Positions 5,071 through 7,122 of a stretch of 8,720 bases of DNA are shown here, in pieces. Made by a program: the position numbers and the translations under genes. Origin of the DNA: Streptomyces speibonae (GTDB lineage Bacteria > Actinomycetota > Actinomycetes > Streptomycetales > Streptomycetaceae); assembly GCA_000715605.1 (NCBI GenBank), contig KL568532.1, positions 103,260-111,979 on the forward strand, read 5' to 3'. Each line of letters starts with the position of its first letter. Position 1 is the first letter of the stretch. The notes under the pieces were generated by a model. That model was given only the letters and a program-made list of their open reading frames with translations, searched no databases and was not told the origin of the DNA.

Positions 5071-5325
5071 GTGCCGAAGTCACGTATCCGCAAGAAGGCC
5101 GACTACACGCCGCCGCCGGCGAAGCAGGCGACGGCCCTCAAGCTGACCAACCGCGCCTGGGTCGCGCCCGTGATGCTGGCGCTGTTCCTCATCGGGCTGG
5201 CCTGGATCGTCGTCTTCTACGTCACCGACGGCACCCTGCCCATCGATTCCCTGGGCAACTGGAACATCGTCGTGGGCTTCGGGTTCATCGCCGCCGGATT
5301 CGGCGTCTCCACGCAGTGGAAGTAG
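5071..5325 (+). CDS. crgA: Cell division inhibitor/coordinator CrgA
   Basis: 84 aa, the usual length for CrgA. The protein begins [15 protein letters not shown], the characteristic basic N-terminus of the family, and has two membrane helices at about residues 30-51 and 62-80 joined by a short loop ([13 protein letters not shown]), ending QWK. In Streptomyces CrgA holds back FtsZ-ring formation and links aerial growth to sporulation septation; in mycobacteria it is a divisome membrane protein that contacts FtsZ and septal synthesis proteins. The GTG at 5071 is the start: AGGAGAG lies 6 bases upstream and the product then matches the family N-terminus. A frame open from 5002 would add unrelated residues. 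A strong hairpin follows 25 bases after the stop. Confidence 0.95.
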
Positions 5326-5350
5326 CGCACTCCGCACAGTGAGCGCTGCT

Positions 5351-5382
5351 CTGCCCAGAGCTGTTCCCACAGCTCTGGGCAG
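5351..5382 (+). terminator. crgA hairpin terminator
   Basis: CTGCCCAGAGCTGT (5351-5364) pairs perfectly with 5369-5382 across a TCCC loop: 14 bp, located 25 bases after the crgA stop. It ends 2 bases before the first DnaA-box-like sequence, so it should keep crgA transcription out of the box cluster. Confidence 0.8.
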
Positions 5383-5384
5383 GA

Positions 5385-5596
5385 CTATCCACTGAGTTAT
5401 CCACAGCCCTTGTCCACATGTGGATAGGGAACCCGATCTGTGGATAACCCTTCGAAGGTTGACGCCGGTGTGACAGAAACACTGGCAACCGAAAACATGT
5501 TCGCAAGTCGCCTGACCTGCGCAAACACCGGTCGATCGGTGAAAGTCCCGGCCTCCCGGCACCCTGTGCACAAGATCCGCCACGAACTGTGGACAA
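5385..5596. promoter_or_regulatory. Cluster of DnaA boxes outside oriC
   Basis: Nine-base DnaA boxes found by eye: TTATCCACA 5397-5405 (+), TTGTCCACA 5410-5418 (+), TGTGGATAG 5419-5427 (- , CTATCCACA), TGTGGATAA 5439-5447 (- , TTATCCACA), TGTGCACAA 5565-5573 (- , one mismatch) and TGTGGACAA 5588-5596 (- , TTGTCCACA). A weaker CTATCCACT is at 5385-5393. TTGTCCACA and TTATCCACA are the strong Streptomyces and general bacterial boxes. The second and third abut head to head with no spacer; the third and fourth start 20 bases apart, about two helical turns. The cluster fills the 280-base gap between convergent crgA and the rhomboid gene, so a promoter role is unlikely. S. coelicolor has DnaA-box clusters outside oriC reported to bind DnaA and moderate initiation (H69, H24, D78, from memory); this may be the counterpart of one. 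No AT-rich unwinding element or dnaA/dnaN gene is present, so it is not oriC. Confidence 0.85.
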
Positions 5597-5605
5597 CCTC
5601 GGCCC

Positions 5606-6493
5606 TCAGGTGAGCTGCGCCGTCCTGAGCACGGTCATCAGCACCACCACGGCCAGCACCAGCGCACATGTGCCGTACTGCACCAGCGCCCGCCGGTTCC
5701 GCGGGGCGTGCACCATGGCGTACCCGATCACCACACCGGCGACGAACCCACCCAGGTGCGCCTGCCAGGCGATGTTGCCCCACCCGAACGTGATGATCAC
5801 ATTGATGACCAGCAGGGCGATGATCGGACGCATGTCCTGGTTGAGCCGGCGCATCAGCACGGCGATCGCGCCGAACAGACCGAAGATCGCGCCGGACGCA
5901 CCGAGTGACGCCGTGGAGCCCGAGGCCAGCACATAGGTCAGCGCACTGCCCGCCAGCCCCGAGATCAGATAGAGCGCGAGGTAGCGGGCGCGGCCGAGAG
6001 CCTCCTCCAGCGGGCCGCCGAGCCACCACAGACCGAGCATGTTGAAGCCGATGTGCCAGATCGCCTCGTGCGTGAACATCGAGGTGAACAGGCGGTACCA
6101 CTCGCCCTCGGCCACGCCCTCGGTGGGCAGGAAGGGCTCCGGCGGCCAGACACCGACCAGCACGAGCGGGTCCAGCAACGACGGCCGGATCTGCACGGCG
6201 AGGAACACCGCGAGATTGATTCCGAGGAGGATCTTGGTCAGCAGCCGGGGATCGGCGGCGACGGTCCCGCCGGCGATGGTGCGCGGCATCGAGGCCGCGG
6301 GCGAGTGTCCGGTGCCCGACCCGCCACGGACGCACTCCGGGCACTGGAATCCGACGGAGGCACTGACCATGCACTCCGGACAGATCGGCCGTTCGCACCG
6401 GGTGCAGCGGATACCGGTCTCGCGGTCCGGGTGGCGATAGCAGACAGGGACGCGCTGGGCGCCCTGCGGGCCGCCGGCAGCCTGGTCGTCCAT
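5606..6493 (-). CDS. Rhomboid family intramembrane serine protease with N-terminal zinc finger
   Basis: 295 aa. The N-terminus carries a Cys/His cluster (Cys18, His21, Cys30, Cys33, Cys38, Cys41, Cys51, Cys54) with the spacing of a B-box-like cross-brace zinc finger. A linker (to about 80) is followed by a rhomboid domain of six or more membrane helices. Rhomboid hallmarks are present: His147 and Asn151 (WHIGFNM), catalytic Ser200 in GASG, and His246 in AHLGGF, giving the Ser-His dyad. Such enzymes cut membrane proteins within or near the bilayer; the substrate here is unknown. The ATG at 6493 is preceded by AGGGG 5 bases upstream. An open frame reaches 7000 but runs through ppiA and is not conserved-looking. 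The gene lies 101 bases after ppiA on the same strand with a strong terminator between, and converges on crgA across the DnaA-box cluster. Confidence 0.93.
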   Translation of the reverse strand: MDDQAAGGPQGAQRVPVCYRHPDRETGIRCTRCERPICPECMVSASVGFQCPECVRGGSGTGHSPAASMPRTIAGGTVAADPRLLTKILLGINLAVFLAVQIRPSLLDPLVLVGVWPPEPFLPTEGVAEGEWYRLFTSMFTHEAIWHIGFNMLGLWWLGGPLEEALGRARYLALYLISGLAGSALTYVLASGSTASLGASGAIFGLFGAIAVLMRRLNQDMRPIIALLVINVIITFGWGNIAWQAHLGGFVAGVVIGYAMVHAPRNRRALVQYGTCALVLAVVVLMTVLRTAQLT

Positions 6494-6523
6494 GGGATCC
6501 CCTACGTCGTGTGGAAAAAGGCA

Positions 6524-6555
6524 CGCCCCGCCCATCCTTACGGATGAGCGGGGCG
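6524..6555 (-). terminator. Intrinsic terminator of ppiA
   Basis: Arms 6524-6537 and 6542-6555 pair over 14 positions with one mismatch and a 4-base loop. Read on the minus strand, the stem is followed within 4 bases by TTTTT (6515-6519), the only classic T-tailed terminator in the window. It begins 39 bases past the ppiA stop and its T-run ends about 20 bases before the rhomboid start. Confidence 0.85.
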
Positions 6556-6594: not shown

Positions 6595-7122
6595 TCAGCC
6601 CTCGCGGATCTGGACCGACTCGATCACCACGTCCTTCAGCGGACGGTCGGTACGCGGGTTGGTCTGCGTCGACGCGATGCTGTCGATGACCTTCTGGCTC
6701 GCGGCGTCGGTGACCTCGCCGAAGATCGTGTGCTTGCGGTTCAGCCACGCCGTCGGGGAGACGGTGATGAAGAACTGCGAGCCGTTGGTGCCCGGACCGG
6801 CGTTGGCCATCGCCAGCAGGTAGGGCTTGTCGAAGCGCAGGTCGGGGTGGAACTCGTCCTCGAACTGGTAGCCGGGCCCACCGGTCCCGTTCCCCAGCGG
6901 GTCCCCGCCCTGGATCATGAAGCCACTGATCACCCGGTGGAAGACCGTGCCGTCGTAGAGCTTGTCCGTGGACTTCTGACCGGTCTGCGGGTGGGTCCAC
7001 TCCCGCTCGCCCTTGGCGAGCTCGACGAAGTTCTTGACCGTGATCGGCGCGTGGTTCGGGAAGAGCCGGACCTCGATGTCGCCGTGGTTGGTCTTCAGGG
7101 TGGCGTAGAGCTGCTCAGCCAC
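6595..7122 (-). CDS. ppiA: Cyclophilin-type peptidyl-prolyl cis-trans isomerase
   Basis: Cytoplasmic single-domain cyclophilin, 175 aa, no signal peptide. It catalyses cis-trans isomerisation of Xaa-Pro bonds. The active-site signature is intact: FHRVISGFMIQGGD (Phe61, His62, Arg63, Gln71), the GSQFFIT strand (Phe118), Trp126 and His131 in WLNRKHTIFGEV; Trp126 is the residue linked with cyclosporin binding in this family. A YQFEDEF segment at 85-91 is typical of bacterial PpiA. The GTG at 7122 is chosen because GGAAGG sits 6 bases upstream and the product begins VAEQLYATLKTN as in actinobacterial relatives; the frame is open to 7341 with non-conserved residues. It diverges from the DUF5324-like gene and ends at a T-tailed terminator. 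It is the likely counterpart of mycobacterial ppiA, which also lies near crgA. Confidence 0.95.
   Translation of the reverse strand: MAEQLYATLKTNHGDIEVRLFPNHAPITVKNFVELAKGEREWTHPQTGQKSTDKLYDGTVFHRVISGFMIQGGDPLGNGTGGPGYQFEDEFHPDLRFDKPYLLAMANAGPGTNGSQFFITVSPTAWLNRKHTIFGEVTDAASQKVIDSIASTQTNPRTDRPLKDVVIESVQIREG

What the first reader, a model, noticed from the sequence alone, without database searches (positions are those of the whole stretch)
5385..5596. DnaA-box cluster away from oriC between two convergent genes
Five exact or near-exact DnaA boxes (TTATCCACA or TTGTCCACA type) and two weaker ones fall in 212 bases. They include a spacerless head-to-head pair (5410-5427) and a third box two helical turns on. 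Convergent genes on both sides and the crgA hairpin at 5351-5382 make a promoter role unlikely, pointing to DnaA titration or initiation control. Clusters of this kind (H69, H24, D78) were reported in S. coelicolor from memory; this may be an orthologue of one, so the novelty is uncertain, but its pairing with crgA, a division regulator, deserves attention.
Basis: partly seen in the sequence, partly recalled or inferred. Interest (0 to 1): 0.75.

Follow-up and report, generated by a model that had tools for sequence, protein, structure and literature searches.

The report
Ancient DnaA-box array beside crgA
Just after the cell-division gene crgA this genome carries a tight array of predicted binding sites for DnaA, the protein that starts chromosome replication; the same array sits beside crgA in nearly every Streptomyces examined and, in a related form, in most actinomycete families sampled, where it likely helps limit or time replication.

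Summary
The gap holds six DnaA boxes within one mismatch (four exact) in 200 bp, including the spacerless head-to-head pair. It is the only place in this 8.76-Mb assembly with four exact boxes within 250 bp, about 20 kb from oriC. It is conserved: each of 80 fetched streptomycete crgA loci has three or more boxes there, as do 30 of 30 loci from an even genus draw. Boxes A and D are identical in all 81 aligned loci.

Of 101 crgA loci from 37 other families of the class, 80 have at least two boxes within 200 bp after crgA and 74 a head-to-head core (2 of 1,257 control windows). A whole-genome scan for that core in 236 genomes gave 36 sites, one per genome, all 25-213 bp past crgA. The neighbouring gene changes; the array stays. 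The mycobacterial counterpart is published as DnaA-bound (PMC7738170), so this is very likely a real, ancient DnaA-binding element. Sequestration of DnaA from oriC is my preferred mechanism, inferred; a DARS-like or crgA-coupled role is open. The Streptomyces cluster itself is probably the H69 cluster reported in 2006 (recalled; paper not held).

The parts
5071..5325 (+). crgA, cell-division protein CrgA; the gene whose 3' side carries the array
   Evidence: Pfam CrgA PF06781, E 2e-30 over the whole protein
5351..5382 (.). strong hairpin, terminator-like for crgA; not conserved as sequence in relatives
   Evidence: window 5335-5395 folds at -34.5 kcal/mol, z -4.8; mean identity 0.405 in 81 loci
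5385..5393 (+). weak box-like site CTATCCACT (two mismatches)
   Evidence: sequence
5397..5405 (+). DnaA box A, TTATCCACA, exact
   Evidence: identical in 81 of 81 loci
5410..5418 (+). DnaA box B, TTGTCCACA, exact; left half of the head-to-head pair
   Evidence: A-to-B start offset 13 in 58 of 81 streptomycete loci
5419..5427 (-). DnaA box C, CTATCCACA, one mismatch; right half of the head-to-head pair, no spacer to B
   Evidence: weakly conserved letter by letter (0.63)
5439..5447 (-). DnaA box D, TTATCCACA, exact, inside the invariant stretch ATCTGTGGATAAC
   Evidence: identical in 81 of 81
5459..5474 (.). conserved non-box motif TTGACGCCGGTRYGAC (TGAC-N7-TGAC), candidate site for a second protein, unidentified
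   Evidence: 11 of 16 positions kept in 79 or more of 81 loci; with its leading G the only exact match in the genome
5565..5573 (-). DnaA box E, TTGTGCACA, one mismatch
   Evidence: columns 5567-5572 kept in 80 or 81 of 81
5588..5596 (-). DnaA box F, TTGTCCACA, exact
   Evidence: mean identity 0.996 in 81 loci; D-to-F offset 149 in 56 of 81
5606..6550 (-). convergent rhomboid-protease gene (start codon not settled)
   Evidence: Pfam Rhomboid PF01694, E 1.3e-36

Best explanation
The gap between crgA and the rhomboid gene holds a conserved array of predicted DnaA-binding boxes, built round a head-to-head box pair, that likely draws DnaA away from oriC about 20 kb off and so would restrain or time replication initiation. 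Shown here: the boxes, their near-invariance in Streptomyces, their recurrence beside crgA across the class, the preserved box spacings, and independence of the neighbouring gene. Shown elsewhere: DnaA binding at the mycobacterial counterpart. Inferred: DnaA binds here in Streptomyces, the array doubles soon after oriC fires and then takes up free DnaA, and its tie to crgA helps keep replication and division in step.
For: Boxes and rarity. Streptomyces conservation: three or more boxes in 80 of 80 fetched loci; even draw, the best 30 of 45 genus crgA hits given as loci: 30 of 30 with three or more boxes, 27 of 30 with the A-D pair; A-D pattern in 380 of 392 genus genomes, usually one site, control 0. 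In the 80 loci, 271 exact boxes lie in the 350-bp gaps and 19 in the other 1.42 Mb. Class-wide: core in 74 of 101 loci against 2 of 1,257 control windows, in 29 of 37 families; genome-wide core pattern at 36 sites in 36 of 236 genomes, all 25-213 bp past the end of the CrgA match, control 0. Nearest recognised gene after the array in core-bearing loci (79 of 80 scored): rhomboid (-) 48, PH-domain (+) 11, Zn-ribbon (+) 6, thiolase (-) 5, unrecognised 9 (families shown on examples), which argues against a promoter. Published passages: M. tuberculosis DnaA pulls down and gel-shifts this position, M. smegmatis DnaA ChIPs its homologue, and neither neighbour changes in dnaA mutants (PMC7738170). 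A review treats S. coelicolor box clusters as datA-like repressors of untimely initiation (PMC5742627).
Against: No binding or deletion data for this Streptomyces site were available to me. In the mycobacterial study, site variants lengthened cells while the initiation rate was unchanged, which fits a pure titration model poorly. The array stays with crgA even where crgA lies 81-132 kb from dnaA (G613, G609, G465), so distance to oriC alone does not explain its place; in G643, at 168 kb, no core was found. A plain sink would need box number, not the fixed 12-13 bp spacings seen.
Confidence: 0.6

Rival explanations
1. A DnaA-reactivating, DARS-like element: ADP-DnaA bound head to head on the core, helped by a tandem third box, would release ADP and so promote initiation.
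For: Of 80 core-bearing class loci (four of them fetched because they had the pattern), 73 have a tandem flanking box by a loose six-letter pattern, with A 12-13 bp before B or D 11-13 bp after C; random placements in the same loci give 21 of 4,000. One head-to-head plus one tandem pair is the topology of the DARS core. DARS1 of E. coli read the same way: + box, - box 14 on, - box 12 on. Reviews call the head-to-head pair characteristic and essential.
Against: The head-to-head spacer is 0-3 bp (1 bp in 62 of 80) against 5 bp in DARS1. In Streptomyces C-D is 19-22. The published review groups the Streptomyces clusters with repressors.
Confidence: 0.15
2. A local switch on crgA: DnaA bound just past the stop codon acts as a roadblock or terminator, or crgA read-through strips DnaA from the array, coupling division to replication.
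For: The array follows crgA through changes of neighbour and of distance to dnaA, and all 36 genome-wide core sites are at crgA.
Against: Neither neighbour's expression changed in mycobacterial dnaA mutants. Of 81 streptomycete loci, 54 have hairpin arms in the D-E interval and the window has a strong hairpin before A, which could suffice for termination.
Confidence: 0.15
3. A terminator or chance repeat mistaken for DnaA boxes.
For: The core is a palindrome and the gap has true hairpins.
Against: Core halves are 0-3 bp apart, leaving no loop unless the stem opens; asymmetric single boxes accompany it; exact boxes are 4.5 per kb against 0.04 in control windows, 91 against a shuffle mean of 0.15; mycobacterial DnaA binds its counterpart.
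Confidence: 0.03

Closest known systems
S. coelicolor DnaA-box clusters H69, H24, D78 (Smulczyk-Krawczyszyn et al. 2006, not held; cited in PMC5742627)
   Same: Box clusters near but outside oriC in Streptomyces; this is probably the H69 locus (recall: cosmid H69 holds SCO3854, crgA).
   Different: The orthology could not be tested. What I recall of the in vivo work concerns D78. Class-wide conservation and the tie to crgA are not something I recall from it.
DnaA-binding site Rv0010c-Rv0011c of M. tuberculosis and its M. smegmatis homologue (PMC7738170, passages read)
   Same: Lies between crgA (Rv0011c, name recalled) and the next gene; palindrome of two DnaA-like boxes. Class loci of family f6 such as L206 have CrgA, core, then a PH-domain gene, with crgA 12-14 kb from dnaA in G475, G589 and G649 (24 kb in G540, 35 kb in G431).
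   Different: In L143 and L206-L208 no A box stands next to the core and D is 13 bp on; the next gene is co-directional; DnaA binding is shown there, not in Streptomyces.
E. coli datA
   Same: Origin-proximal DnaA-box cluster in a gap flanked by gene 3' ends.
   Different: All essential datA boxes point one way with an IHF site; here both orientations meet head to head.
E. coli DARS1/DARS2
   Same: One head-to-head pair plus a tandem third box.
   Different: Shorter head-to-head spacer here; no activity data; DARS2's IHF and Fis sites not sought.

Membership tests
Non-oriC DnaA-box cluster (general kind) | More DnaA boxes in a short stretch than chance, away from oriC | tested here: met
   oriC is C14:128456-128965, cluster C14:108656-108855
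Non-oriC DnaA-box cluster (general kind) | Bound by DnaA | not testable with these tools
   seen in print for the mycobacterial counterpart only
S. coelicolor H69 cluster | Same locus, between the crgA and rhomboid orthologues | not testable with these tools
   2006 paper not held; a text search with H69 found 0 papers, one with SCH69, SCO3854, StH69 found one Streptomyces paper, PMC4416010, which I did not open
Mycobacterial Rv0010c-Rv0011c DnaA site | Immediately downstream of crgA | tested here: met
   window 5397-5596 follows crgA; f6 loci such as L206 have the same order. The following gene differs: rhomboid here, PH-domain there
Mycobacterial Rv0010c-Rv0011c DnaA site | Palindrome of two DnaA-like boxes | tested here: met
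   window boxes B and C; core in 74 of 101 class loci
datA | Essential boxes share one direction | tested here: not met
   boxes A, B are + and C to F are -
DARS | Box I opposite to boxes II and III | tested here: met
   window B(+), C(-), D(-) or mirror A(+), B(+), C(-); 73 of 80 class loci with core
DARS | Spacing as in DARS1 (starts 14 and 12 apart) | tested here: not met
   window 9 and 20; class core mostly 10 and 12-13
DARS | Speeds ADP release from DnaA | not testable with these tools
   needs purified protein
oriC | Lies beside dnaA | tested here: not met
   the dnaA C-terminal domain is at C14:129219-129419, about 20 kb away

The most novel reading that the evidence does not exclude
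An ancestral actinomycete control element: a three- or four-box DnaA complex with a head-to-head core, inherited with crgA since early in the class, that resets DnaA (DARS-like release or sequestration) and is coupled through crgA to septation, so that one small non-coding site links replication initiation to cell division in Streptomyces and mycobacteria alike.
Probability: 0.3. Interest if true: 0.9.

Novelty: new variant of a known kind. Interest (0 to 1): 0.74.

Why it matters
Most actinomycetes, to my knowledge, lack the E. coli regulators of DnaA, and how they time initiation is open. A single non-coding site conserved beside crgA in 29 of 37 sampled families outside the genus (74 of 101 loci) is a strong candidate for such a regulator. 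It would join two separate reports, a Streptomyces box cluster and a mycobacterial DnaA site, into one element that can be tested in harmless soil bacteria, and it gives the closeness of crgA to oriC a possible reason.

Tried and rejected
Error found and corrected: searches (second part; first part; first part) located the crgA stop with a query that ended in a stop sign. In many loci the 'downstream' stretch then began too late, and box counts came out too low (27 of 95 with core; 4 of 30 genus loci with A-D). repeat the work without it and replace those numbers. The neighbour identifications rest on the loci themselves and were redone.

Rejected or left open: promoter of either neighbour (convergent genes, changing neighbours); known RNA family (only weak hits below the gathering score near the gap; tRNAs only); sigma-70 promoter at the TTGAC motif (no -10 in place by eye, no scan run); MtrA site at 5459-5474: the reverse strand reads GTCACACCGGCGTCAAC, a half-match to the published direct-repeat consensus, but 33 of 81 loci break the half-site, so only a lead. 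Helical phasing of D-F (149, 159, 169) looked suggestive, but most loci share 149 by descent and few independent changes exist, so I make no claim.

Results against: the A-D pattern site of G345 is 50 kb from its crgA, though its crgA has three or more boxes too (L133). One search prints only part of its sites; of the five genomes with both positions printed, four are at crgA. Of the 12 genus genomes without the A-D pattern, crgA was found in nine; eight keep three or more boxes and L199 has one, from a truncated hit. Outside the genus, 8 of 101 loci have no box in 200 bp, and families f2, f5, f29, f34, f39 and f45 have no locus with two or more. The strict core pattern hits only 36 of 236 genomes. 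Dropped rows: L155 and L227 (too short), L182 (not a convincing crgA), L288-L292 (fetched because they had the core). One search includes all of these except L227 in its set; four of the five fetched ones and L155 are among its 80.

Full report
The window lies at C14:103260-111979 of an 8.76-Mb draft assembly whose crgA neighbours are Streptomyces. crgA (5071-5325, +) and a rhomboid gene (ending at 5606, -) converge on a 280-bp gap. One search places six DnaA boxes within one mismatch there, four of them exact, with B and C head to head and no spacer. The shuffled expectation for the whole window is 1.32 sites; 10 are found. Genome-wide there are 71 exact TTRTCCACA (control pattern 14), and no other place has four within 250 bp. 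Sixteen of the 71 lie in the 119.9 kb round oriC that I read, where 0.97 would be expected. oriC itself (C14:128456-128965, just past the 3' end of dnaA; named from position and box density) has 11 boxes within one mismatch but one exact, so by exact boxes this cluster is the densest in the assembly. The assembly is rated only 82% complete, so an unseen rival is possible.

Conservation in Streptomyces. All 80 have at least three boxes in the 350 bp after crgA, mean 4.9. In an alignment of 81 with the window, boxes A and D are identical in every row, F is 0.996 identical on average, E 0.94, B 0.87 and C 0.63; the hairpin before the array is 0.41 and crgA's own coding sequence 0.91. Exact boxes number 271 in the 350-bp gaps and 19 in the other 1.42 Mb of these loci, and no other 250-bp window there holds more than three boxes. 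A less selected sample is the even draw: the 30 loci given (of 45 genus genomes, own included) all have three or more boxes, and 27 have the A-D pair. The A-D pattern occurs in 380 of 392 genus genomes, mostly once, with a control count of zero. In one search most sites are reported on both strands because the pattern is nearly its own reverse complement.

Other conserved parts. After D comes TTGACGCCGGTRYGAC, of which 11 of 16 positions are kept in at least 79 of 81 loci; it has a single exact match in the genome, and its binder is unknown. D-to-F is 149 bp in 56 of 81 loci. Hairpin arms between D and E occur in 54 of 81 loci (L060 and L032 fold strongly); the window lacks them and has its strong hairpin before A. 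Hairpins move, boxes stay.

Beyond the genus. I took crgA loci from even draws over the order and class with further stretches, mostly one per genus, chosen before looking at their gaps. After the correction described under Tried and rejected, 101 loci from 37 families remained. Within 200 bp after crgA, 93 have a box, 80 have two or more, and 74 have the head-to-head core TCCMCA-N(0-3)-TGKGGA; control windows from the same loci have it in 2 of 1,257. Boxes number 229 against a shuffle mean of 5.4 (maximum 12 in 20 rounds). Control windows include coding DNA and the loci are related, so the p-value (3e-96) overstates independence; the family count, 29 of 37 with the core, is the fairer figure.

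A test without choosing crgA first: the pattern TTNTCCMCANTGKGGANAA was run over 236 whole genomes of the class. It hit 36 genomes of 20 genera, once each; the reversed control hit none. All 36 sites lie 25-213 bp past the end of the CrgA match (positions; distances). The 23 genus genomes in that draw do not match this strict form because their B-C pair has drifted; 22 of them were also, and 21 of those have the A-D pattern.

Geometry. In 80 class loci with the core (four of them fetched for having it), the B-C spacer is 1 bp in 62; A-to-B is 12-13 bp in 43 of the 48 with an A; C-to-D is 11-13 in 29 of the 41 with a D; 73 have a flank at one of those spacings, against 21 of 4,000 random placements; 16 have both flanks. 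In Streptomyces A-to-B is 13 in 58 of 81 and C-to-D 19-22 in all 68 scored (13 not scored). So one head-to-head pair plus one tandem partner is the common plan, in two mirror forms. E. coli DARS1, read here from K-12, is + at 7108, - at 7122, - at 7134 of L286: the same topology, another head-to-head spacing. I took this to be DARS1 from its place between bioD and uvrB (recalled). datA boxes point one way.

Neighbours and position. The nearest recognised gene after the array (five query proteins, 79 of 80 loci scored) is a convergent rhomboid in 48 core-bearing loci, a co-directional PH-domain gene in 11, a co-directional Zn-ribbon gene in 6 and a convergent thiolase in 5, with 9 unrecognised (families confirmed on examples). 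Of 25 genomes asked for dnaA, all have one. Where the crgA position is printed on the same contig, distances run from 12 kb (G589) to 168 kb (G643, whose crgA shows no core). Arrays persist in G613 (81 kb), G609 (84 kb) and G465 (about 132 kb if the contig is circular), so the array follows crgA and not merely the origin.

Literature. In PMC7738170 (passages read) M. tuberculosis DnaA enriched five regions, among them Rv0010c-Rv0011c; ChIP-seq in M. smegmatis found the homologues; a gel shift confirmed binding; a palindrome of two DnaA-like boxes lies 65 bp before Rv0010c; variants there lengthened cells, with the initiation rate unchanged; neither neighbour's expression changed in dnaA mutants; the authors leave titration or nucleotide exchange open. 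The paper does not use the name crgA (0 occurrences). That Rv0011c is crgA is recalled, and is supported by f6 loci here: CrgA, core, PH-domain gene, with crgA 12-14 kb from dnaA in three of the five f6 genomes asked. PMC5742627 (passages) says S. coelicolor box clusters act like datA, citing the 2006 paper, which is not held. No title or abstract start in the listings joins the two sites; I opened few of those papers, and subscription papers are mostly outside that library.

Reading. That this is a DnaA-binding element under strong selection is very likely. How it works is inferred: I favour sequestration of DnaA near oriC, with DARS-like reactivation and coupling to crgA as live rivals. The mycobacterial phenotype, longer cells without changed initiation, speaks for the link to division.

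Noticed in passing
class loci such as L167, L206, L212, L238, L263, just before the first box: A second conserved palindrome, consensus aTYACAnnnnTGTRAtTC, stands next to the array in many families: 32 of 101 loci against 0 of 1,257 control windows. A slightly stricter form was absent from the nine class and two own-genome stretches round dnaA that I scanned. Its binding protein is unknown.
   Followed up: partly
5459-5474: Motif TTGACGCCGGTRYGAC after box D is nearly invariant in Streptomyces and has one exact genome match; a weak MtrA-like half-site on the reverse strand is only a lead.
   Followed up: partly
L060 within 10346-10465 and L032 within 10340-10460 (D-E interval): Strong hairpin with arms CCCCCTG...CAGGGGG between boxes D and E in 54 of 81 streptomycete loci, absent from the window, which has another hairpin at 5351-5382.
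   Followed up: partly
own genome C14:166385-166647 and C18:55898-56221: Two further box groups: five boxes including one exact near the contig end, and four exact boxes in 324 bp. They may correspond to other reported Streptomyces clusters.
   Followed up: no
own genome C14:50001-169903: Exact DnaA boxes are crowded round oriC: 16 of 71 in 1.4% of the assembly.
   Followed up: partly
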